Origin: Diploscapter coronatus
Lineage: Eukaryota; Nematoda; Chromadorea; Rhabditida; Rhabditidae
Assembly: GCA_964036155.1 (NCBI GenBank)
Contig: OZ038422.1
Coordinates: forward strand, 68,037,201-68,101,200
DNA: 64,000 nt
Direction of reading: 5' to 3'
Under the pieces are notes generated by a model that was not told where the DNA came from, made no database searches, and saw nothing but the letters and a program-made list of their open reading frames with translations. Position numbers and translations under genes: made by a program. Shown here in pieces: positions 31,920 to 51,601 of this stretch. How positions within the stretch are numbered: position 1 is the stretch's first letter; every line of letters begins with the position of its first letter.

Positions 31920-34900
31920 ATGACTTATTTGCTATTGCTACTCGTATTCCTAATTTGCTTAGCTTTGTTCTACGTATCGGAAGCATTCAATTTCTATGTG
32001 AAAGTTACATTTTACTACATTTGCATCCTTGGAAATGCGATATGCGGGACCTTCACTATGATTCCTTCCTGGCTGCGAGATGATGTAAGCCCTGCATTTT
32101 TTTAGTAAAAATAACTAGCAAAGTTTGGCTGAGATGATAATTTAGACGTGTGTAAGCGTTATCCTTATACCGTTTTAATGACAAGATGTTCCAACAACAA
32201 CCATTTGAAAATTTTCCGAATTATTACTAGATTTCGGAAGAGGAGCGAAGAAAGTTTTGATATGAAATTTTCCAGTCAGAATCAAAATTTCCTTTTTAAA
32301 CATTCCAAAATCGAAATTTTGAAGCGGAAGTGGGAATCGGCATCTTTCTTCTAAAAATGATCTAATAGTTCATAACTCATCGTAAAAAATAAATTTTGGA
32401 ATTTACAATGGAAGAATTTGGTAAAAAAGTTGATAAATTTTGAGTTATTTTTTCCTCGAGGTATGGAAAAGATATTCGAAACTTTAACCCATTTTTCTCG
32501 AAGTTGAAGTCCCATTTCTAAACTTTTCGAAGTCGAAATCGAAGTAAAAATTTTAATTCTAAAAATTACGACGTCGAGAGTTGTGTGCCTTTGCTTCTGA
32601 AGAAGCCTTCAATTTTGGACAAGAATACGTGAGAAAGTCAAATAGTCTTGGTTAGCCTGACCTCATAGATTGAAAATCGTCTAATGAATTTTCAATTCTG
32701 TTCATGGTTGTCAAGATTTTCGACCCTGCACTTTTACGTGTACGGCAGGAAGCAAAGAGGGCAAAGGGAAAGGTCGGATGGACAGAAAAAAGACACTCAG
32801 GCTGGGAATTCGAACGAACTGTAATTGGAGGGCAATTATGAAATTTGGTGGACGCGCAGTGGAGTGAAGTGAGTGAGGAGACGATAGATGAGAGAAGGGA
32901 AGGAAGAGGATTCAACCATTTCAGTCAATCATTTTATGCATTCTTTTATGGCTATGAACGGTCGTTGCAGTGCTGCAGTCAGTCAAAATAAACGATCAAT
33001 GAACAGCGAAATCCGAAAAATGCGACGATTCCAAATTTTGAGGGAGTCAAAATTATCAGTTTCGAACTTTTTCATACTGTTGAAATTTTGTCAATAGGAA
33101 TTTCTAAGCTACTTCCAGACTTCTATGCCACTTTCAATCTGTATGATTTTCTAGTGGGATAGAAAATTAGCGTAGTTAGATAATATCGACAGAAGTAAAT
33201 AAACATGAAAATGTGCAGAGATAGAATAAACCACGCGAACTAGGTGAAAGACGACTACGCTGTGGACGAACTCGCGAGAGAAAATCCAAAAAGAATGAAG
33301 CAGTGAAAGGTTGAAGTAGACTGGAGAGTATGAATATGCGCGGAATAGCTTCTTTCGATGGAATACGATAAAGTCCCAATACAACACGAATAAATACGAA
33401 TTTCAGGGTGCGGATTTCATATTCTACGCATTTCGATATTTTCAAGGATGGACAGGAATGAATGTTAGTTCTTTTTATATTTTTAACTCAATGTATTTTC
33501 TTAATTTTAGATAGAAATACGCGATTTCGATCGGGTTTATTCGAAAGTAAAGGGACCTGCGGTGGTCATTATGAACCATCAGGTAAATTTACGACACTTT
33601 GAATTAGGCCTCAGAATATTTTTATTCCTGGATAAATTTATGGACTTTGTTAATCTAGCGCAAATCTAGGCTTTATTGCATCAGACACTCCAAATTTAGA
33701 GCATCAAGAAGCATTTTTATTCCTGATTTTCGAGCTTTTAACGTCGAATTAGCACCATAACACAGTGGATTAGCGCGTTGTCTTTGTTGTCTCGCACCTG
33801 CTTATTTTTCTTGTGGGTTCGTCTTTTTTGCCAAAAATCACTGATTTTCTTTAGCAGAGGCTCTGTATACGCAGCTGTTTGGTTCGAGAGAAGAAACGCA
33901 TAAATTCTATTTCTTACTATTAGCCGAAGTGAATAGCTCATTGCATGCAATGATTGAGAAATTGAGTGATGTTCTGGCAAGAAACAAACGGACAATTCTT
34001 TTCTTTCTTCCTAAAATAGATCTATAATCTGCGATGATTGCTAGAATAGTTTTGAAGTAAGGATATTGGTAAACAAAATTTTCGAGAAACTCTAACATCG
34101 TTTTCGTAATCGAGATTGATTTTGTCAATAACCCCTAGAAATTGAAAATCTTCTCGAAGTTAATTCGAAATTTGTATCATCTTTGATCAGATATAGCAGA
34201 CTTTGAATACGAATAAGAATAACTCTCCAAGAGATTTTTATGGATAAAAGTAGCTTTGAAATGAAGTCACGAAGTGAATAGAAGTTCATCGAGACAGCCG
34301 AATACAACTAAATTGAACAGCGAAATATAAAGGTGCAATACAAATTCGTGAAAGATTTTCGAAAGCTGGCAGTGATATTTGAGAGATAAATAGAGCTGAG
34401 TTGGACGAGAATTAAAATCGAGTTTTTTTTTTTTTGTAATTTATGAAACTCGTGAAATTTATTGACGATGAAAGGAAATTGTTTGGAGACTTGGGCAGGG
34501 GGTTTGTATGACACAAACAGGAGAATGGAAACAGAAAGAGGGAGTATGATCGAAACGAATCTCTGGACCTGTGCCAATCACAGTGCAGAGGAAAGAGAAG
34601 AGGAAAATTGGCAGAAGAACAGGGGAAAGAGTTGGCGAGGAGCCAAAATGACAAATCACAATACACCTGAAATGATTCTTGGAAGTGCATCTCTTGAATG
34701 AAGTGAACTGAGGCTAATTTTAGTTTCGATGCAAAGATCAAACTTTGAAATTTCAAGTTTCAATAGTAAACTAAGCTCTTAAAACTATTAGTCAAGCTTA
34801 GCATTCTTCCTTTCAATTTTCATTTCATAATCTTGTCTAAAAATATTCAATTACTAAAAGTATAGCTATTTATCACGTTTTGCAGTCGAATTGACAAAAA

Positions 34901-37900
34901 TATCTGCGTTTAAAATGGCAATAACAATATCAGCAAAGTGATCATAAAATTTTATAGTCGCGTATGAAATAACGGGTAAAACTAATTCCATTTTGAATTG
35001 CTATTTTTCATGAAAGATATGGGCGTTTTAGAAATGGAAAATCGAATTTTAAATGATGAATACGTGAGGGTGGAGATGGGAAGGATATTTCCGGTTTCCT
35101 TCATTGAATTTTCATATCGCGTATCCAGGCAATGAAATGATGCGATTCCAGATCAAAATGGTCCAAATACGCATAATAAATGCGGAATATATTTGGATCT
35201 TTGAATAAGCCGAATTTGCAAAAGTTAATAGTTCTCAGAAATAAACAAAAACGCGCATGTATTGCCAAAATCGCCTCCGAGAGAAGTCTGCTTCTTATTC
35301 TTCGCAAAGGCTACGTTCAGTTTTCGTTTTCCAAGAGCCCTCAACAAAAGCTATGCTTATTTAGTGTTTTTCATGAATAACAAGGCACCTATCTTGCTTT
35401 TTGGCACGTTATGTATGCATAGTATAATTGAACTAACAAATTTAATTTGATACTCAAAATCAATCAATAATATTTAAATTATTATGGGGTTGTTTTGGAT
35501 CAAAGTCCGATTTCTATGTTGTGAAAAAATTTTAGTGGAGGCTGAAGGTTGAGAACAATTCTGATCGTGAACGTAACCTAATAAGCCCAGTAATTGTGAA
35601 CCGAATTGGATGAAATTTTCCGCACATATTCTTCTCATAAAATTGTAAATTACTATCAAGTTTCATTCAAATTGGTCCACGCTAATTGATCATACCATAT
35701 TGTATTCCTAATGGTAATTGCTTCAACTTTTTTTTTTTAAATCTTAACATTATCTATTCCGTTACGAAAATATCCCAAGTTATTTAAAATTAAAATTTAC
35801 TAAAGTCGCGAAAAATTTCGCCATTATCGGCATTACTTGATTTCACAAATAAACTCTAATAATTTAGCTAAAATAGTAGGATCTCTTAACATCATTACAT
35901 TCGGTTTAAAATATGAAGCTACAGCTGGAATTTAAATAATACAAAATTGCTGCTATTGCATATCGCGTTATTAATTATTTCAAACTTGCATCATTATTCG
36001 AATAAGATATTTCTATCGAAAATTCAGAGCACAATTGGAGATGTATTCACGATGTCTTACAGCTGGCCTCCTCGAGGAGTTGTGATGATGAAGAAGTCGC
36101 TGGAATTCATACCTTTCTTCAACACGACCAGTTGGATGGCAAGTTGTTAAAATTGGTTAAATTTATTTAATTAAACGCTTTCTAGAAATCAGACAGAAAG
36201 GTTATAATCTATTTTATGTTTGATAAAAACGGTGAAACACGTGGTAGTAGAGCAAATCGATATTATACTTTCAGAGTCTGATATGGAGATTTTTGGAGGG
36301 TCCTTAATTTTCAAAATACCGGGTCTCGATATCCAAATCTCGCGATTTTTTAGAGTTTTGACGAAAGTTTTCAACTACAAAGTTAGAAGAAAAAATCCAG
36401 AGAGTATCATACAAAAACAATCTCCTATGAGTATCCATTAGGAACCCGGCCAGATGGGTCGGAAAAGTGACCGAAGATTTCTAACACATAATTCAAATGC
36501 TAATTTTGGAATTCTGGCATTTCTAGTTGTAAATACACAAAGTGCGTCCTTGAACACCTCAAAATTTTTGCCATAATGCGATTTCACTGCTCAATCCGAT
36601 TGGACTCTACAATCTACTTTGACTGAATTGAAACGACCTAATCCGATCGTCTCTTTTTCCATGCCTTGAGAAAGAGATTTTCTTGGCGCATAGACTACAG
36701 TCTACGAATTAGTTTTCGCATCTTTTTGCTATTGTGAGGATTAAAATCTGTAGGGCAATATCATGATCCCTTCTCCCTGATCTACAGGGAGAATGTAAAA
36801 TCCAAAATTCTAGAATGATTGGAATTTTTCAACGAATGACGACCATAAATGTGTCCAAATTATGCAATGCACTTTTTTCGAACCAAAATGAAGTGATGTA
36901 TTATGGATGCCGATTAGTTTGCTGTTCTCTCAATTGGATTATTGAATTTTTAGCGTTCACAGACGTGAAATAGACTAAATTGGTTTTATTACGAGGCGCA
37001 CAAAATGACTGCCAATTTTGGAAAAATGGGCAGCAACATTGTTATGAGAGAGCAAAAAGAGTGCAAGAAAGAGAAGAAAAAGTGTATTTCAGATTGAAAT
37101 TTGAAGGTTTTTTGAATGGAAGAGTTTGCCTGCTGTCTGTCTGGTTGAATGTTTTGAATGTGTTGTTGAGGTGCATCTCAAGCCCACTTGAATTCGCATT
37201 TGAGCGTTATTTCCACAGAGCCAGACGAGTTTTTGAGCGGCAAAAGCGAAGAGCTTCTAGAGTTGCAGACAGAACAGAGCAGCGACGATGAGGAGAGAAT
37301 TGACTTCGTGTGAGGTCGAGGGGCACATCCAGAAAAAAATACTGCTCTATTGCATTTACAATGAGAAAAAAAATGAAAAAAACGATAACTTTATGAATAG
37401 CATATACGAATTTTTTCAACATCCACCTTGTGTGTATTTTTTCGTCATAATTGGTGAAATATTCACAATCAAAACTTGTTATCTGCAAAATTAAAAAAAA
37501 AAAAATTTGAAATAATTTTTGATAACGACTAATGATTTCCAGTCTAAAATTTTCTTTAAATTTTGTAAACTACTATGAACTGAATTAACTACGATCATGG
37601 ACAGTATTCAAAATCGAATCGAATCGAAGATTGATCATATCATATTATATTGAGCTTGAAAATTATAACTTATCGAGTCTTTGTTATCCTTTTATAAAAT
37701 ACAATAATGCGATTCATAGGAACATGAAAAATGCTATCCAATAGATGATTCATTTTTATCATCAACTATTCAGTGCAATTCGATCTTCGTTGAACGATTC
37801 AAGAAAACAGACCCGATGAGGGCTGTTGACACATGCGTCGATAAAATGACTAAGAAGAATCTGAAGCTGTGGGTGTTTCCTGAAGGAACTCGGAATCGAC

Positions 37901-39067
37901 ACGGAGGAATGCTGCCATTCAAGAAAGGAGCATTCAATATCGCCATCAAAGTAATTTTATTGAGATACACACACATATGATAGAGAAAGATGTCTAGGCC
38001 CAAGCACCTATAATTCCTATGGTCACTTCTGACTATCGACCATTTTATTCTAAACCACGCAAGTATTTCCACTTTGGCGGAGAAATCATAACGCAAATCA
38101 TGGATCCGATTGAGACTAAAGGGGTAAGTGAAGTCTAAGTTTTTGACATCGATCATTAGTTGAACAATGTATGGCTTCACCAAGTTAATGATAGACACGT
38201 GAAAATAAATTTGTACATCCATATCAAATTCATGGCATGACTCGATGGTCCAGATCATGAGATTTGCAGAATTTATATCGTAAAACCTCTAATTGAAACC
38301 CATGGGCTTCTATTTTCAGAGGTTCAATTTTCGGAAAAATGAAAACTTCAAACCGTCATAACTTTTGATGTGGTGATCATCGAAGCCTAGAATCGAAAGT
38401 AAATATGCTCTAAAGAATGCATAGGAATATTTTACAAGGTGGTTTGAGATGGGTGTTAGGTAGTTATGACATTTTGGGGATAGAGTTCTATTGGAGGGAA
38501 GCTCCAGTTAGTTTTATGATAATTTGAGACATATTGTTACTATCGTAGTTTTTATTCGAGAATTGATTTGAGTGGAAAATTTTTATGAGCATGATTCGGA
38601 AGACACGTAACGAGCATTTTTGAAAGTGAATTTCTGTAATTTGTCATCGTCAAAATTAACTTTCAAAAGCATTTTGCTCATTATGTCAGATTGCTTTTTT
38701 GTGATTAGAATCGTAAACCCGATCTAAAACATTTGAAGCGGAAATTTGGGTTTGTCGCGACATCGCGTCTGACGAATTGTGTGCAAAGTGAGAAAACACC
38801 CCCTTACACCCTCCTAATCCTATAGCCTAGTTCGTCTGGTTGTGACAAATCCAAATAGCCTTTTAAAACTAAATGTTTCGGAAAATCAATTTTATTATCC
38901 CTGATCAATATCAAATAATCAGAGAAATTTAGCTGACACTCGATGACGCTCCAAAGCTAGCTGAGGAAGTGCGTGAGAAGATGCTCAAAGTTTACGAGAC
39001 AATCAGTGAAGAAGCTCGTCGCAAAATGGAAGCAAAAGGCATCAAAACTGCTTTCAAACATCAATAA
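31920..39067 (+). CDS. 1-acyl-glycerol-3-phosphate acyltransferase (LPAAT/AGPAT)
   Basis: Seven exons give 280 residues: 31920-32084, 33407-33463, 33511-33582, 36028-36138, 37774-37950, 37998-38123, 38933-39067. A trans-splice-like acceptor (TTTTTAG) ends 2 nt before the ATG. The N-terminus is a long hydrophobic anchor (MTYLLLLLVFLICLALFYV). The PlsC domain follows: GPAVVIMNHQ, then VVMMKKSLEFIPFFN, LKLWVFPEGTRNR (EGTR at residues 172-175) and APIIPMV. The enzyme makes phosphatidic acid from lysophosphatidic acid in the ER; nematode orthologues are acl-1/acl-2. The usual HX4D motif reads H97-QSTIG-D103, one residue longer than normal. Intron 4 begins with GC (ATG|GCAAGT), which is needed to join FFNTTSWM to CNSIFVERF in frame. 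AATAAA overlaps the stop codon. Confidence 0.92.
32085..33406. other. Intron 1 of the acyltransferase gene
   Basis: 1.3 kb; AT-rich with a GA-rich stretch near 32740-32910. No exon or repeat recognised. Confidence 0.6.
33583..36027. other. Intron 3 of the acyltransferase gene
   Basis: 2.4 kb; contains a GA-rich stretch (about 34490-34640). A weak inverted repeat lies near 35598-35680 (GAATTGGATGAAAT against ATTTCATNCAAATTGG type). No coding exon found that would restore a standard HX4D motif. Confidence 0.55.
36139..37773. other. Intron 4 (GC-AG) of the acyltransferase gene
   Basis: 1.6 kb intron with GCAAGT donor and ATTCAG acceptor. No exon seen inside. Confidence 0.6.
38124..38932. other. 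Intron 6 of the acyltransferase gene
   Basis: 0.8 kb, AT-rich, nothing further recognised. Confidence 0.6.
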
Positions 39068-39730
39068 ATTATTCAAATTTCTAGACTTTGATTTTGAAAT
39101 TTGAAATCAACGATCACAGCACACAAATCAGCAGATCAATTTTGACTGACAAACACATGAACCTTAGACGGAAATATACACCTCCGCTTACAGACAATCC
39201 AAGCTAATCTTTGCCCTGTGCTCATGTTCTGAACTTATTTCATTGTTCCGGTCCAATTCGGCTAATAGCTTTGATTCTCTTCCCTCTCGATTGAATTAAA
39301 CTCTAAGTTCATCGACTGTTGAACTAGCTGTTAGAGGAATCCATCTATAGCAGATCCGGCAACAATCACAAAGTAAACTTGCGTGTTGTCCCGCTTTCAA
39401 CTCGCTTGATGTTTATTTTTTCCTTCGTCGGATAAGCTTACGGACATATTTCCTTTTTCTCGCATTATTCGCCGTTAGCTTAATACACAGATCCTATATC
39501 CGTATCACTATTTTATAACTTTCTGGATGAATGTGAAAACCAGGATAGGGATGGATTCGGTGGATTTGTTTGCTCAGAAGGTCAATCACAGCACGGAAGA
39601 GATTGGTGTTGGGAAATCAAGAAATTCACTATAAATACGAGGAAGGTTGGTTCGTTCGACAAGCAGCTTTCATTCGAACATTCTCCAATTATTCATTCCT
39701 ACTTCCAGTAATCATCACTTCAGCTTTCAG
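39068..39730. promoter_or_regulatory. Upstream region of the exon-repeat gene, with TATA box
   Basis: TATAAAT at 39630-39636 lies 95 nt before the ATG. Two acceptor-like sites (CACTTCAG, CTTTCAG) precede the ATG, the second directly abutting it. Confidence 0.55.
39630..39636 (+). promoter_or_regulatory. TATA box, exon-repeat gene
   Basis: TATAAAT 95 nt before the start codon. Confidence 0.6.
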
Positions 39731-41094
39731 ATGAAGTCTCTTCTTGTCGCTCTCCTCGGTGCTTCCGTCATCGCTGTTCTCGCAGCCCCAGCTCCACCGC
39801 CCCAGGGCGGCCAGCAACCAACACAGGGACAGCAGGGTGGAAATCAGCAGAGACCCCCACCCCCACCTCAGGTATGATAACAAAAGCCGAAGATTTGTTT
39901 ATAAATTATTTTAGGGCGGTCAGCAGCCAGGACAAGGACAGCAGGGCGGAAATCAGAGACCTCCTCCTCCTCCTCAGGTATAATAATAAAAGCCTGATTT
40001 ACCCATTGATGAGTTTAAGGGTGGCCAGCAGCCAGGACAGGGACAACAGGGTGGAAATCAGCAGAGACCCCCACCCCCACCTCAGGTATGATAACAAAAG
40101 CCGAGGATTTATTCATAAATATATTTTAGGGCGGTCAGCAGCCAGGACAAGGAGGTCAACCACCAATGGTAAGTGATTTGTTTCTTCAATTTTTATGAGC
40201 TTTTATGTCATATATAAAATCAAGAGTGAATTTAAGGGCGGTCAACAAAGACCCCCACCCCCACCTCAGGTATAATAATAAAAGCCTGATTTACCCATTG
40301 ATGAGTTTAAGGGTGGCCAGCAGCCAGGACAAGGAGGTCAACCACCAATGGTAAGTGATCTGTTTCTTCAGCTTTGACGAGCTTTTATGTCAGACAAAAT
40401 CAAGGATAAATTTAAGGGAGGCCAGCAGCCAGGACAAGGACAGCAGGGCGGTCAGCAGCCAGGACAAGGAGGTCAACCTCCAATGGTAAGTGATTTGTTT
40501 CTTCAGTTCTTATGAGCTTTTATGTCATATATAAAATCAAGAGTGAATTTAAGGGTGGCCAGCAGCCAGGACAGGGACAACAGGGTGGAAATCAGCAGAG
40601 ACCCCCTCCCCCTCCTCAGGTATGATAATCATAGCCTGATTTACTCATTACTGGACTTAAGGGAGGACAGCAACCAGGTCAGGGAGGTAACATGCCACCA
40701 CCTCCACCTCAGGCATGATAATAAAGTCGAAAATTTGTTTATAGATATATTCTAGGGCGGTCAGCAGCCAGGACAAGGACAGCAGGGCGGAAATCAGAGA
40801 CCTCCTCCTCCTCCTCAGGTATAATAATAAAAGCCTGATTTACCCATTGATGAGTTTAAGGGTGGCCAGCAGCCAGGACAGGGACAACAGGGTGGAAATC
40901 AGCAGAGACCCTCTCCCCCTCCTCAGGTATGATAATAAAAGCCGAAGATTTGTTTATAAATATATTTTAGGGTGGCCAGCAGCCAGGACAGGGAGGAAAC
41001 CAGAACCCCCCTCCTCCACAGGTTTGATAATCATAGCCTAGTTTTACTCATGAATGGACTTAAGGGTGGTCAGCAGCCAGTACCAGCTTATTAG
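39731..41094 (+). CDS. Secreted Gly/Gln/Pro-rich repeat protein from 13 repeated exons
   Basis: Exons are 39731-39871, 39915-39977, 40020-40085, 40130-40168, 40237-40269, 40312-40350, 40417-40485, 40554-40619, 40662-40712, 40756-40818, 40861-40926, 40971-41021 and 41065-41094. Together they give 258 residues. Exon 1 encodes a signal peptide (MKSLLVALLGASVIAVLAAP) and one repeat. Exons 2-12 each encode one GGQQPGQGQQGGNQQRPPPPPQ-like unit or a shortened form. The last exon ends GGQQPVPAY. All introns are phase 0 and 42-68 nt long. They fall in two sequence families that travel with the exon type. In most introns the reading frame meets a stop directly after the donor (GTA TGA or GTA TAA). The donor after exon 9 is GC (CAG|GCATGA). 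It is probably an extracellular or cuticle/secretory structural protein, but no named family is claimed. Poly(A) signal at 41160-41165. Confidence 0.88.
39872..41064 (+). repeat. Tandem exon-plus-intron repeat array
   Basis: About 12 units of one short exon and one 42-68 nt intron. Introns starting GTATGATAA/GTATAATAA share AAAGCCTGATTTACCCATTG-type or AAGCCGAAGATTTGTTTATA-type bodies. Those after the PPM exons start GTAAGTGAT and share CTTTTATGTCA and AAAATCAA segments. The repeat unit is therefore genomic, not only coding. Confidence 0.9.
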
Positions 41095-41620: not shown

Positions 41621-43326
41621 ATGGATCATTTGAAACAAATGTTCGCCGAAGCATTCAACGTGATGAGTCCAATTGCAATGAGACTTCAAAATGATTTGGA
41701 TGAGGCAAAATCGTCGTAAGAAAGAATACGATAGTCGATGAACGATAACTTGGAATAAAGTGAAAGGGGTGCGTTTCTTTCTCCCCTTCTGCGAGCTACG
41801 GATCTTCCTCAATTTGACGGCTGTTCTTTGTTGGCCTTTTTCTGTTTCCCTTTCTTTTTCGCGTTTTTAGGAATAATTATCGATAACTGGCCAATTAATT
41901 TTTATCAATATCGATAGAGAAAAATAGTAGGAAGATTTTCATAAAGAAACTCTCTATTAGCTTGGGTGAAAATGCAAAAAGATTATTGTGAAAGATTATA
42001 AACAAAAATTCCAAACGAACAAATGTTGTCAGCGAGCGCATTTCGAGGCTCAAAAGAGGGAGAGAAAGAAGTACTTTTTTTATTCCAAGTTATCGTTTAT
42101 CGACAATAATTTGCCCATACATTAAACTTTGCAAATTTAAGTGGTAATCAAGCTGAATTGGATAGACTGAAACCATATGCTGAAAAAATCCATGAAATAG
42201 CTTTGAGGCATTCTGAATTGAAGAACAATATCGTGGATTTGCTAAAAATGGATTATTTAATCAACATTGTAAGTCAAAGGCTTTATAAATTGAGCATTTT
42301 GTGTTTAGATATTGAAACCGGCTCTTGAGTCTATTCCCATTGCAATCGACAAATGTACAGCCTTGATCAATAAAGTAAGATACTCATAAAACTGATTTTA
42401 TACCATAATTTAGACGAAAGAATTGATCAAGCTATTGAATCGCGCCAATAAAAGAGGAGTTGCAGATGAAAATAATGAGGTTAACAAGACGATAGCGGAA
42501 CAGAACTAGGGAGTATGAACGTCAGCAAGCTCTTGCGACCTGCCTTCCGAAATTTTTTTAAACGAATTTCCCTCTTCAACCTGTAATTAGTCAAAGTTTT
42601 TGTCTGTACGATCTGATATCATAACTATGACTCGTTCGTACGATCTTACCCCTTATAATTTATTGCCGTCTGGCGAAGGTACTCCCTAGATCTGTAGCAG
42701 AAAGATAGAAAATAATCGAATAATTGTTGAATTTCAGGGTGACATAAATATCGCTCTTCAAGAAATGATTGTGGGCTAATGGAATATGTTCCAATTGTAA
42801 TATAAATTTAGAGCTCATTCTTTGATTGTTGGAGCGCACTTGATATAGCAGAGAGGAAAACTGCGGAGAAGAACGAAGCCCAATATCGCGTATCATTTAT
42901 CGCCTATGGCATGGATAAGTGGTCAATTACGGTTACTTTAGCACTTATGATGAGCATAATACCGATTAGTTTAGATATTTCTTGAGAATATCCATAACAT
43001 AGTGAAAGAAATAATTGAATTGATTGGTGACTTTCCAGAAGATTTCGTACGTTTTCAGTGAAAAAAGAAAACATTGAATAATTTTCATTTAGAATCAACG
43101 GACAGTGAAACACAAATCTGATATTCTGGAGAAATTTGAGTACTTTACTGATAAGATAAAAGAATTACAAAGTAACCATAATTTTGAAAACGGAATTAAC
43201 GAATTTCAGACACAAATTAAGGTAAATAATAATTTTGTTTTGAAAGCTCGATAAGTTTATATTTAGGATGCTCAAGATATAGCTGATTCACTGTTTCATA
43301 CTTCAACGAATTTTCAGGTTGACTGA
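41621..43326 (+). CDS. Unrecognised helical protein, 241 residues
   Basis: Preferred model: exons 41621-41715, 42142-42268, 42309-42374, 42414-42479, 42738-42770, 42812-42889, 42975-43046, 43093-43221, 43267-43326, total 726 nt in frame. The alternative ends at TAG 42507-42509 (127 residues). That stop comes from the end of the inverted-repeat element inside intron 4, so splicing past it (GAG|GTTAAC) is more attractive. The product looks entirely alpha-helical, with Leu/Ile heptads (HEIALRHSELKNNIVDLL, IFLENIHNIVKEIIELI, DILEKFEYFTDKIKELQ). It has no signal peptide, Cys pattern or catalytic motif. AATAAA at 43603-43608 lies about 115 nt before the acceptor of the next unit. I recognise no family. 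Confidence 0.6.
42506..42689. mobile_element. Possible 184-bp MITE
   Basis: CTAGGGAGTA at 42506-42515 and its perfect reverse complement at 42680-42689 bound the element. Internally, two GTACGATCT copies lie 35 nt apart. No target duplication is clear, so the identity is uncertain. It lies in intron 4 of the 241-residue gene. Confidence 0.4.
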
Positions 43327-43749
43327 ATGGCATTGATCATTCTCATTTTTTTCAATTCTGAAATTTCGTATATAATATCTATTTTTCTCAAATTATGGCC
43401 AGAACAAGTATTATAAAATTAGTCATCATGATGATAATTTGAGAGTAAACAAGTTTAATGTCATTTCATTTTTAATCTGCAAAATATTTGACTTTCTTGA
43501 CTATTCTTTGTATTTCTGAAAGTCAATCTTAATTTCTGGGGTAGTAATTTTGTCAATCAGGTAATTGTTTATTATTGTGAGCATAGTTTAAAATTCAAGA
43601 TTAATAAAGATCATTCATAATTATAGTTTTTCTGATTAAATACAATATCGGTTAAATATCCGGATTTTTTAATGTAATGTATTATTCCATTAATCTTCAT
43701 AAGCTCAAATTTAGGCATTGAAAATCATCAATCAATTGAGCTATTGACA

Positions 43750-44498
43750 ATGATTGCTATGCATATGGAAGATCATGACGCATTATCACAACAAGATCAG
43801 GTAGATCACGGTCATATAAATAATAAATTAGTTAAAATTTTCCAGTTTTAGGACAATTCAGAACTGGGCTATTCCTACAAATTTCTTTTCCTGCCCAACC
43901 TATTGAGAGCCATTCGCGGAGACACTCGAAGAGCTAATTTTGCCAATTTTATTTTTAGCGCCTATAGCGTGAGTATTAATGTTGTTTGTGAGAGTAAGTA
44001 TACATTAAAGAAAATTAAGTTATGGATAGATACCCGAGGAACTGTTTCCTACCAAATGTATGAACTAGCAAACAAATTTATGTCTGATCCTTGGGACGAT
44101 GCTGGAGAGGAAGAGACGCTTGGCGGTGGAGAGGATATTGAACTGGAAGAAGAAGATGAAGAAGAACGAGAGGATGAAGGAATCGGAGAGGAGCCTGAGG
44201 GTGATCCAGAGTTGAATAATCATGAAGAAGCTGGCAATAATGATGGCGTTGTTTCGGATGATGAAATTGAGATTGAAGAGGCTGGATACGATGAAAGAAT
44301 GGCCATCATAAATGCTATTCGAGGAAATGGGAGATTCGGAGAAGTACATCTTCAGTATTTATGAAAAATGACATAATCGTTTAGCCTCCCATGTCTGTGG
44401 AAGAGTTTGAAGAACTTCAAGAAATTCTGCGCCATCGATTCGAAGGACCTTTGGAGGAGAGATTCAATGTGCCCATAATCAACATCGAACAGCAGTAA
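43750..44498 (+). CDS. Unrecognised protein with a strongly acidic domain
   Basis: Exons 43750-43800 (after acceptor TTTAG at 43724), 43852-43993, 44030-44343 and 44385-44498. The third exon encodes a long Glu/Asp run (EDIELEEEDEEEREDEGIGE) followed by SDDEIEIEEAGYDERM. Intron 2 is only 36 nt; it could be retained, although an unspliced frame is also open there. The end is uncertain. Either CAG CAG TAA at 44498 is the stop, or the strong donor CAGCA|GTAAGT leads into the exons from 44796, but then the phase is off by one. It could be part of one larger gene with the neighbours on both sides. Acidic runs of this kind occur in nuclear and histone-binding proteins; no function is claimed. Confidence 0.5.
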
Positions 44499-50880: not shown

Positions 50881-50968
50881 GAGATGGAGTCTGAGCAATA
50901 GTCGTGTGCTATCATAGCTTGACCTCACTCCAATAAGTTTCTTATTCAAACTACCAATCATCAGGACG

Positions 50969-51601
50969 ATGCATTCATCGATTGTCTCCCTTTTACTTGT
51001 AACTATCGTTTCCGTAGCTGTATCATTCCCGATATACAAGGTAACATCTTGCAGATCTCGAAGGATAGCATTCCAACATTTCAGAGAAATCAATTCGCAA
51101 CTGATTCTTTCGATGGAAATGGTAATTTCCCTGATTGGACCAGGCAAAGTGGAAATGAAGGCAGAAGATTCTCGAAGCAGCCATTTGGCAACAATAACAA
51201 TAACAACAACGGCAACGGCAACGGCAATGCAAGTGGATTCAATCAAAGAGGACGATTCTCTGGACGATTAGGCAACAACAATGTGGATGGATCGAGTGAA
51301 GAAGAAGGACAAATGAGAGGATCCTCGGGCAGATCCAATCAGAATGGGAACAGCTTCGGCAGAAATGGAGGGCAGAACCAAAGAGGAGGATTCGGGGGAT
51401 TCTCGGGCGGATTCAACTCAAATCGGAACGGCAATGGACTTGGAAGCAGCAATTTCCCAGGCAAATTCGCGTTATTTTTAGAATTTCTAACTGGTTTAAA
51501 TTTCAGGTTTCAGTAGAGGAAGTAATTTCAATGGAAACAGCGATAGATCTTCCGGGTCTTTCGGACAGAGTCAAGGATTCGGCAACTTTGGAGGATATTG
51601 A
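50969..51601 (+). CDS. Secreted Asn/Gly/Arg/Ser-rich protein (paralogue 1), 180 residues
   Basis: Exons 50969-51040, 51085-51460 and 51507-51601. The signal peptide is MHSSIVSLLLVTIVSVAVSF. The mature chain begins PIYKRNQF and is repetitive and disordered, with polar NNNNN and GNGNGNA runs, QRGRFSGRL, NQRGGFGGFSGGFNSN and a C-terminal QGFGNFGGY. Intron 2 uses a GC donor (CCCAG|GCAAAT). Reading through it instead would add about 18 residues and stop. Glycine/aromatic/asparagine-rich secreted chains may form extracellular gels or coatings, or be precursors of antimicrobial peptides; this is inference. Poly(A) signal at 51648-51653. Confidence 0.85.

What the first reader, a model, noticed from the sequence alone, without database searches (positions are those of the whole stretch)
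39731..41094. Protein built by tandem amplification of an exon-plus-intron unit
Thirteen exons, eleven of them carrying versions of one Gly/Gln/Pro-rich unit, are separated by 42-68 nt introns that are themselves repeated. Phase-0 introns let any number of units be skipped or added without a frameshift. The intron type correlates with the exon's C-terminal motif (PPPPPQ exons with GTATGATAA/GTATAATAA introns, PPM exons with GTAAGTGAT introns). Duplication by unequal exchange is therefore likely, and length polymorphism and combinatorial splicing are possible.
Basis: partly seen in the sequence, partly recalled or inferred. Interest (0 to 1): 0.75.

Follow-up and report, generated by a model that had tools for sequence, protein, structure and literature searches.

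The report
Worm gene of repeated exon-intron units
A nematode, probably of the genus Diploscapter, carries a gene for a secreted, floppy, glutamine/glycine/proline-rich protein that has grown by copying small exon-plus-intron blocks, and copies of the gene on its two chromosomes differ in the number and order of blocks; this resembles the way some spider silk genes are built.

Summary
At 39731-41094 lies a 13-exon gene with 12 phase-0 introns of 42-68 nt, every exon a multiple of 3, encoding a 258-aa protein with a signal peptide; the rest is 89% Gln/Gly/Pro. The genome is a nematode, very probably Diploscapter. Four arrays were found: the window, its allele on C2, and a second locus on both chromosomes, with 13, at least 9, 9 and 8 exons in different orders. 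Exon differences fall mainly on third codon positions (64 of 84), so the frame is probably translated. A two-unit block recurs at 238/249 and one exon+intron at 105/105, closer than the alleles are around the array (about 89%). Introns were found only in the arrays, but those searches were not sensitive. Added: 26 of 26 A/B introns have an in-frame stop at codon 2, against 0 of 6 neighbouring introns. Within-array clustering of units is not significant (11 of 29, P = 0.13). Splicing variants and function are untested. New member of a known kind.

The parts
39630..39637 (+). TATAAATA, TATA-box-like, about 100 nt upstream of the ATG
   Evidence: read in the sequence; also read upstream of the ATG in L008, L009 and L010
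39725..39730 (+). TTTCAG directly before the ATG: possible trans-splice (SL) acceptor
   Evidence: read in the sequence; same in L008, L009, L010; the SL1 sequence is present 269 times in the genome. Its use for this gene is inferred
39731..41094 (+). Whole gene: 13 exons, 12 phase-0 introns, 258-aa Gln/Gly/Pro-rich protein with a signal peptide
39731..39871 (+). Exon 1: signal peptide (MKSLLVALLGASVIAVLA) plus one fused unit with no intron in between
   Evidence: signal peptide judged by eye
39907..40155 (+). Two-unit block, copy 1 (end of intron 1 to start of exon 4)
   Evidence: ungapped self-match, 238 of 249 identical to copy 2 (computed from score 205 and length 249)
40748..40996 (+). 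Two-unit block, copy 2 (end of intron 9 to start of exon 12)
39872..39914 (+). Intron 1, type A; also type A: 40086-40129, 40713-40755 (GC-AG), 40927-40970
39978..40019 (+). Intron 2, type B (GTATAATAA...TTTAAG); identical copies at 40270-40311 and 40819-40860; diverged B copies 40620-40661 and 41022-41064
40169..40236 (+). Intron 4, type C (GTAAGTGAT, 66-68 nt), after a PPM exon; also 40351-40416 and 40486-40553
41065..41094 (+). Exon 13, C-terminus GGQQPVPAY and stop
   Evidence: same in L008 and L010, GGEQPVPAY in L009
41160..41165 (+). AATAAA polyadenylation signal
   Evidence: read in the sequence
38933..39066 (+). Last coding exon of the upstream acyltransferase gene (PF01553); a match to it also lies upstream of the arrays of the second locus
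   Evidence: stop codon read by eye

Best explanation
A real, probably translated Diploscapter gene for a secreted, disordered Gln/Gly/Pro protein. Its middle consists of interchangeable modules of 75-137 bp in the window, each one symmetric exon plus the phase-0 intron behind it. Shown by sequence: modules, or pairs of modules, have been copied (or converted) as DNA, introns together with exons; some copies are more alike than the two alleles are around the array; and four natural copies of the gene differ in module number and order while the signal-peptide part of exon 1 (2-4 differences in 66 nt between any two loci) and the last exon stay nearly constant. Inferred: recombination between near-identical modules (unequal sister-chromatid exchange or gene conversion) adds and removes modules, and the frame is not at risk because the modules keep phase 0. 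Inferred and less sure: the product is a structural matrix or coat protein (cuticle, pharyngeal lining, eggshell or mucus) whose length is under loose selection.
For: Gene model and symmetric exons. Third-position bias of exon differences: 64:13:7 for positions 3:1:2 over 19 nearest non-identical equal-length pairs, 216:45:22 over 51 equal-length pairs (pairs over 20% different were left out); 60 synonymous against 13 nonsynonymous codon differences in the 19 pairs. Like units in two predicted D. pachys proteins, fused by annotation to the same downstream and upstream neighbours as in the window (part of the downstream match read by eye). Allelism of the C2 copy: colinear 94-96% matches about 24 kb up- and about 20 kb downstream. 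Copying: units 2 and 10 identical over 63+42 bp, a 249-bp block at 238/249, introns 2, 5 and 10 identical, against 89.9% and 88.6% between alleles in stretches that flank and reach into the array. Intron hits confined to the arrays.
Against: No transcript was available; splicing is inferred from sequence. L008 holds a 200-base run of N inside the array, so its unit count is a lower bound. Clustering of units within loci is not significant; alternation of intron types is not significant (P = 0.12 in the window, 0.057 over four loci). Gaps in pairwise exon alignments were multiples of 3 in only 641 of 1484 cases; I put that down to arbitrary gap placement in such repeats, which was not tested. 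The role rests on composition only: the window protein hits no Pfam family at E 0.1, P0002's PF15240 match is below its cut-off (27 against 30 bits), and the PGQGQQ motif is absent from the L009 product.
Confidence: 0.82

Rival explanations
1. The introns are mobile (introner-like) and inserted repeatedly into an intronless repeat protein, so that exon repetition came first.
For: Introns of one type are nearly identical; exon 1 has an intron-free PQ-GG or SQ-GG junction in the window, L009 and L010, while L008 has a type-A intron at that place.
Against: Searches of the genome with one A, one B and one C intron hit only the four arrays. Limits: the A pattern found 5 of the 15 known A introns and the B pattern 3 of the 11 known B introns, so diverged copies elsewhere could be missed; the C search found 6 of 6. 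Introns and the exons beside them are copied as one block, and intron type follows exon end in 33 of 33 cases.
Confidence: 0.07
2. Intron retention is used: each short intron begins with stop codons so that partial splicing gives a ladder of shorter proteins, or sends unspliced mRNA to decay.
For: 26 of 26 A/B introns have a stop at codon 2 (21 TGA, 5 TAA), 25 of 26 another at codon 3; at codon 2 the only variation is TGA/TAA, although codon 1 varies (GTA 15, GTT 7, GCA 4). 0 of 6 neighbouring phase-0 introns and 0 of 10 de novo phase-0 candidates have this. The D. pachys model P0002 ends ...SQV, as a read into such a donor would (inference).
Against: The 26 descend from few ancestral introns and are not independent; by eye only about two independent TGA/TAA changes are seen, too few to show selection. 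The control is small. No RNA data. Stops in retained introns also serve ordinary mRNA surveillance (PMC2911113, passages).
Confidence: 0.12
3. A decaying repeat or an assembly artefact without a functional product.
For: Repeats of this kind are hard to assemble; the allele has a run of N; the D. pachys models in this region are fused or partial.
Against: Four loci in one genome keep open symmetric exons and two D. pachys proteins carry the units; third-position bias; conserved first and last exons, TATA-like box and AATAAA.
Confidence: 0.05

Closest known systems
Spider flagelliform and Argiope MaSp2 silk genes with repeated exon/intron units (PMC9779670, passages read)
   Same: Secreted low-complexity protein dominated by a few residues (A, G, P, Q there; Q, G, P here); exons separated by repeated introns; in some genes more than one intron type; unequal crossing-over proposed.
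   Different: Nematode; no sequence relation found; gene is 1.4 kb with introns of 42-68 nt; within-locus clustering and alternation not significant here, whereas repeated introns of a MaSp2 gene average 97.6% similarity.
Schistosome micro-exon genes (PMC10526429, start of abstract in a search listing)
   Same: Short exons in genes for secreted proteins.
   Different: Those have long introns (up to 5 kbp as the abstract says); here introns are 42-68 nt and the exons are repeats of one another.
High-molecular-weight glutenin PGQGQQ/GQQ repeats (PMC13052691, one passage)
   Same: Same short motifs: PGQGQQ 6 times and GQQ 21 times (overlapping counts) in the window protein; PGQGQQ 4, 0 and 2 times in L008, L009 and L010.
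   Different: The passage names disulfide bonds as the elastic framework; here there is no cysteine. Resemblance of composition, not homology.
Nematode low-complexity cuticle proteins: APPG, IDPA-C, FIPR, NSPB families (PMC9629831, passages) and epicuticlins (PMC11529277, start of abstract in a listing)
   Same: Nematode proteins that are low-complexity or tandem-repeat and likely secreted into a cuticle; cysteine-, proline- and glutamine-rich ones peak during cuticle building.
   Different: Not compared directly here; the protein searches returned only two D. pachys proteins, and the window protein has no cysteine.
Nematode polyprotein allergens (PMC3079579, start of abstract in a listing)
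   Same: Nematode proteins made as tandem repeats.
   Different: Those are cleaved into folded lipid-binding units; here no dibasic site and a disordered composition.

Membership tests
Repeat-silk type modular exon-intron genes (Flag, Argiope MaSp2) | Coding repeats delimited by introns that are themselves repeated | tested here: met
Repeat-silk type modular exon-intron genes (Flag, Argiope MaSp2) | Repeats homogenised within a gene relative to other copies of the gene | tested here: not met
   11 of 29 units have their nearest relative in the same locus, 7.3 expected, P = 0.13; single introns are identical within an array (window i2 = i5 = i10; L008 i3 = i7, i4 = i6)
Repeat-silk type modular exon-intron genes (Flag, Argiope MaSp2) | Spidroin terminal domains | tested here: not met
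   no Pfam family at E 0.1; that Pfam holds spidroin models is recalled
Introner elements | Near-identical introns in many unrelated genes | tested here: not met
   all hits of the A, B and C searches lie in the four arrays, with the limited sensitivity stated above
Micro-exon genes | Short symmetric exons in a secreted-protein gene (symmetry as a defining feature is recalled) | tested here: met
   30 of 30 complete internal exons 33-69 nt and 3n
Micro-exon genes | Long introns | tested here: not met
   introns 41-68 nt in the four arrays
Micro-exon genes | Exon skipping giving variant transcripts (recalled) | not testable with these tools
   no RNA data
Nematode cuticle low-complexity proteins | Secretion into a cuticle | not testable with these tools
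   signal peptide by eye only; no expression data
Salivary proline-rich proteins (PF15240) | Pfam match above the curated cut-off | tested here: not met
   window protein and P0001 no hit; P0002 27 bits against a cut-off of 30, though the search listing carries PF15240 as precomputed for P0002

The most novel reading that the evidence does not exclude
Stop codons next to the donor of nearly every short intron make each exon-intron module self-terminating, so that splicing efficiency along the array sets a graded ladder of protein lengths, while recombination between modules sets the maximum length: a tunable material protein in an animal described as parthenogenetic.
Probability: 0.1. Interest if true: 0.75.

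Novelty: new member of a known kind. Interest (0 to 1): 0.42.

Why it matters
It shows the silk-gene way of building a protein (exon and intron copied as one module) in a nematode with tiny introns. D. coronatus, the likely species, is described as parthenogenetic with 2n = 2 and 5.7% heterozygosity (PMC5483258, passages), so the two alleles and the second locus give a ready test of how repeat arrays turn over in such an animal. The two D. pachys gene models of this family are fused to neighbouring genes (P0001, P0002), a warning for annotation of such genes.

Tried and rejected
Largely rejected: introner origin, within the sensitivity stated. Rejected by eye: the window genome being the deposited D. 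pachys strain; P0001 and P0002 match no array here exactly, so D. coronatus (170 Mb, 2n = 2, 5.7% heterozygosity; PMC5483258 passages) is the better guess. The species is inferred, not shown. Not significant: alternation of intron types and within-locus clustering of units. Uninformative: pairwise exon gap lengths. Nothing found: Rfam on the window at gathering thresholds, Pfam on the window protein, papers holding all five terms. Searches listed 15 of 625 and 10 of 1,824 papers; among those listed only the nematode polyprotein allergen paper bears on repeat proteins of nematodes. I did not find this gene described; the searches for that are (20 of 116 papers listed), in a library that lacks most subscription papers.

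Not obtained: a genome-wide control set of introns. The family search for PF00118 did not complete, so the donor comparison rests on 6 introns placed by hand in the two neighbouring genes with P0001 and P0002 as guides (one of them long, only its start read) and 10 phase-0 candidates out of 20 de novo candidates in the window. Allelism of L009 and L010 was not tested beyond their 87.9% match over 4684 columns.

Full report
What is there. The gene runs from 39731 to 41094 on the + strand. Splitting it at CAG or ATG before a G[TC] donor and at TTTAG, TTAAG or TCTAG before GGNGG gives 13 exons and 12 introns. All exons are multiples of 3 and open; introns are 42, 43, 44, 66 and 68 nt. The protein is 258 aa: a signal peptide by eye (MKSLLVALLGASVIAVLA), then, from residue 20, 33% Gln, 28.5% Gly, 28% Pro, with no Cys, Asp, Glu or Lys. 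A TATA-like box (39630), TTTCAG directly before the ATG (39725-39730) and AATAAA (41160) frame it. The neighbouring introns that I could place with a protein guide are 39, 40, 41, 47 and 51 nt plus one long one, so short introns as such are not unusual here.

Which organism. The genome has 169.7 Mb in three contigs, two of them of 87.7 and 82.0 Mb. It contains 269 exact copies of nematode SL1 (the SL1 letters are recalled). The only two homologues returned from about 5.8 billion proteins are from Diploscapter pachys (in one search only the 7988 candidates sharing most words were scored, 81 candidates). D. coronatus is described as a 170-Mb assembly of a diploid, 2n = 2, with 5.7% heterozygosity (PMC5483258, passages). 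I therefore take this to be a Diploscapter, probably D. coronatus, with the two haplotypes as C1 and C2; this is inference.

Four natural copies. The window array (C1:68.08 Mb) and L008 (C2:63.64 Mb) are alleles: pieces of the window about 24 kb upstream and about 20 kb downstream match C2 colinearly at 94-96%; identity is 94.5% some kb upstream and 89.9% and 88.6% in stretches that flank and reach into the array. A second locus, L009 (C1:45.18 Mb) and L010 (C2:42.32 Mb), carries the array gene and, upstream, a match to the last exon of the acyltransferase, so it looks like a segmental copy. The DNA search returns only the best candidates, so further diverged copies are not excluded. Exon counts are 13 (window), 8 complete plus 1 partial beside a 200-base N run (L008), 9 (L009) and 8 (L010) (the partial exon of L008 was merged by the script into an N-holding intron and is read). 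The signal-peptide part of exon 1 and the last exon are nearly constant; the middle differs in number and order of units. Intron types in order are: window A B A C B C C B A B A B; L008 A B A A ? A A; L009 A A A B A C A B; L010 B C B B C x A (? holds N, x is a 52-nt intron of its own).

Is it translated? Probably, on comparative evidence. 30 of 30 complete internal exons in the four arrays are 3n long with eight different lengths, while 33 introns fall into all three classes (the N-holding intron of L008 was left out, and one complete intron behind the N run was not counted). Over 19 nearest non-identical equal-length exon pairs, differences fall 64:13:7 on codon positions 3:1:2; over 51 equal-length pairs 216:45:22 (pairs over 20% different were dropped). 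The pairs share ancestry and are not independent. Against: gaps in pairwise exon alignments were 3n in only 641 of 1484 cases, which I ascribe to arbitrary gap placement.

Is it amplified as exon plus intron? Yes. The best ungapped self-match is a two-unit block, 39907-40155 against 40748-40996, 238 of 249 identical; units 2 and 10 are identical over 63 bp of exon and 42 bp of intron; introns 2, 5 and 10 are identical. These are closer than the alleles are beside the array, so the copying, or conversion, is probably younger than the split of the alleles. The 6 of 6 and 27 of 27 match of exon end to intron type is the same fact seen from another side. Against a simple homogenising array: nearest units lie in the same locus for only 11 of 29 units (7.3 expected by shuffling, P = 0.13), and some units are shared by different loci (window unit 12 and L009 unit 8, 93 of 94). 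So unit types seem older than the loci and have been reshuffled, with some recent within-array copying.

Mobile introns? Types A and B, each searched as one pattern with up to 3 mismatches, and type C, searched as DNA, hit only the four arrays: 5, 3 and 6 places. The A and B searches recovered only 5 of 15 and 3 of 11 known introns of their type, so this is weak for diverged copies and good for close ones.

Stops at donors. All 26 A/B introns begin with one sense codon and a stop (21 TGA, 5 TAA), and 25 of 26 have another stop as the third codon (23 TAA, 2 TAG); the 6 C introns stop at codon 9 or 10; the single 52-nt intron at codon 5. None of 6 neighbouring introns and none of 10 de novo phase-0 candidates has a stop at codon 2. 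Four of the 26 are GC-AG introns. Shared descent explains most of it; the preserved stop despite change at codon 1 is suggestive only. In Yarrowia, in-frame stops arising from intron boundaries make nearly all retained introns carry a premature stop (PMC2911113, passages).

Comparison. The structure is most like repeat silk genes, in particular Argiope MaSp2 and flagelliform genes (PMC9779670, passages), but does not show their strong homogenisation and has no Pfam domain. Motifs PGQGQQ and GQQ are those of glutenin (PMC13052691, one passage), by composition only, and PGQGQQ is missing from L009. The C. elegans pharyngeal cuticle holds secreted disordered proteins, and cysteine-, proline- and glutamine-rich ones peak during cuticle building (PMC9629831, passages): a plausible place for this protein, untested.

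Verdict. A sound observation, an essentially right evolutionary reading with the crossing-over mechanism and the splicing claims unproven, and one added feature (stop-leading introns). New member of a known kind.

Noticed in passing
L008 4910-5061 and window 39731-39871: Intron presence/absence: L008 has a type-A intron after APAPSQ where the window, L009 and L010 read straight on (APAPPPQGGQQ or APAPPSQGGQQ). The D. pachys proteins P0001 (APAPSQ) and P0002 (APAPPPQ) show similar N-terminal forms, so the two forms may predate the species.
   Followed up: partly
L008 5678-8378 and L010 4921-7605: From the array end downstream the two C2 loci are 93.4% identical over 2729 columns, closer than L008 is to its own allele in the window over a longer overlapping stretch (88.6%): possible conversion between loci on one chromosome.
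   Followed up: no
L008 5397-5596: A run of 200 N lies inside the allele's array; whether it is an assembly gap is unknown.
   Followed up: no
window 50923-51516: Another low-complexity open frame, rich in Asn, Gly, Arg and Phe near its end, not checked for introns or function.
   Followed up: no
window 33511-39066: Upstream acyltransferase gene (PF01553), annotated in D. pachys as one fused protein with the array gene (P0002); its last exon also matches upstream of L009 and L010.
   Followed up: partly
window 42269-44495: Downstream gene with an acidic Glu/Asp-rich stretch, annotated in D. pachys as fused to the array gene (P0001).
   Followed up: no
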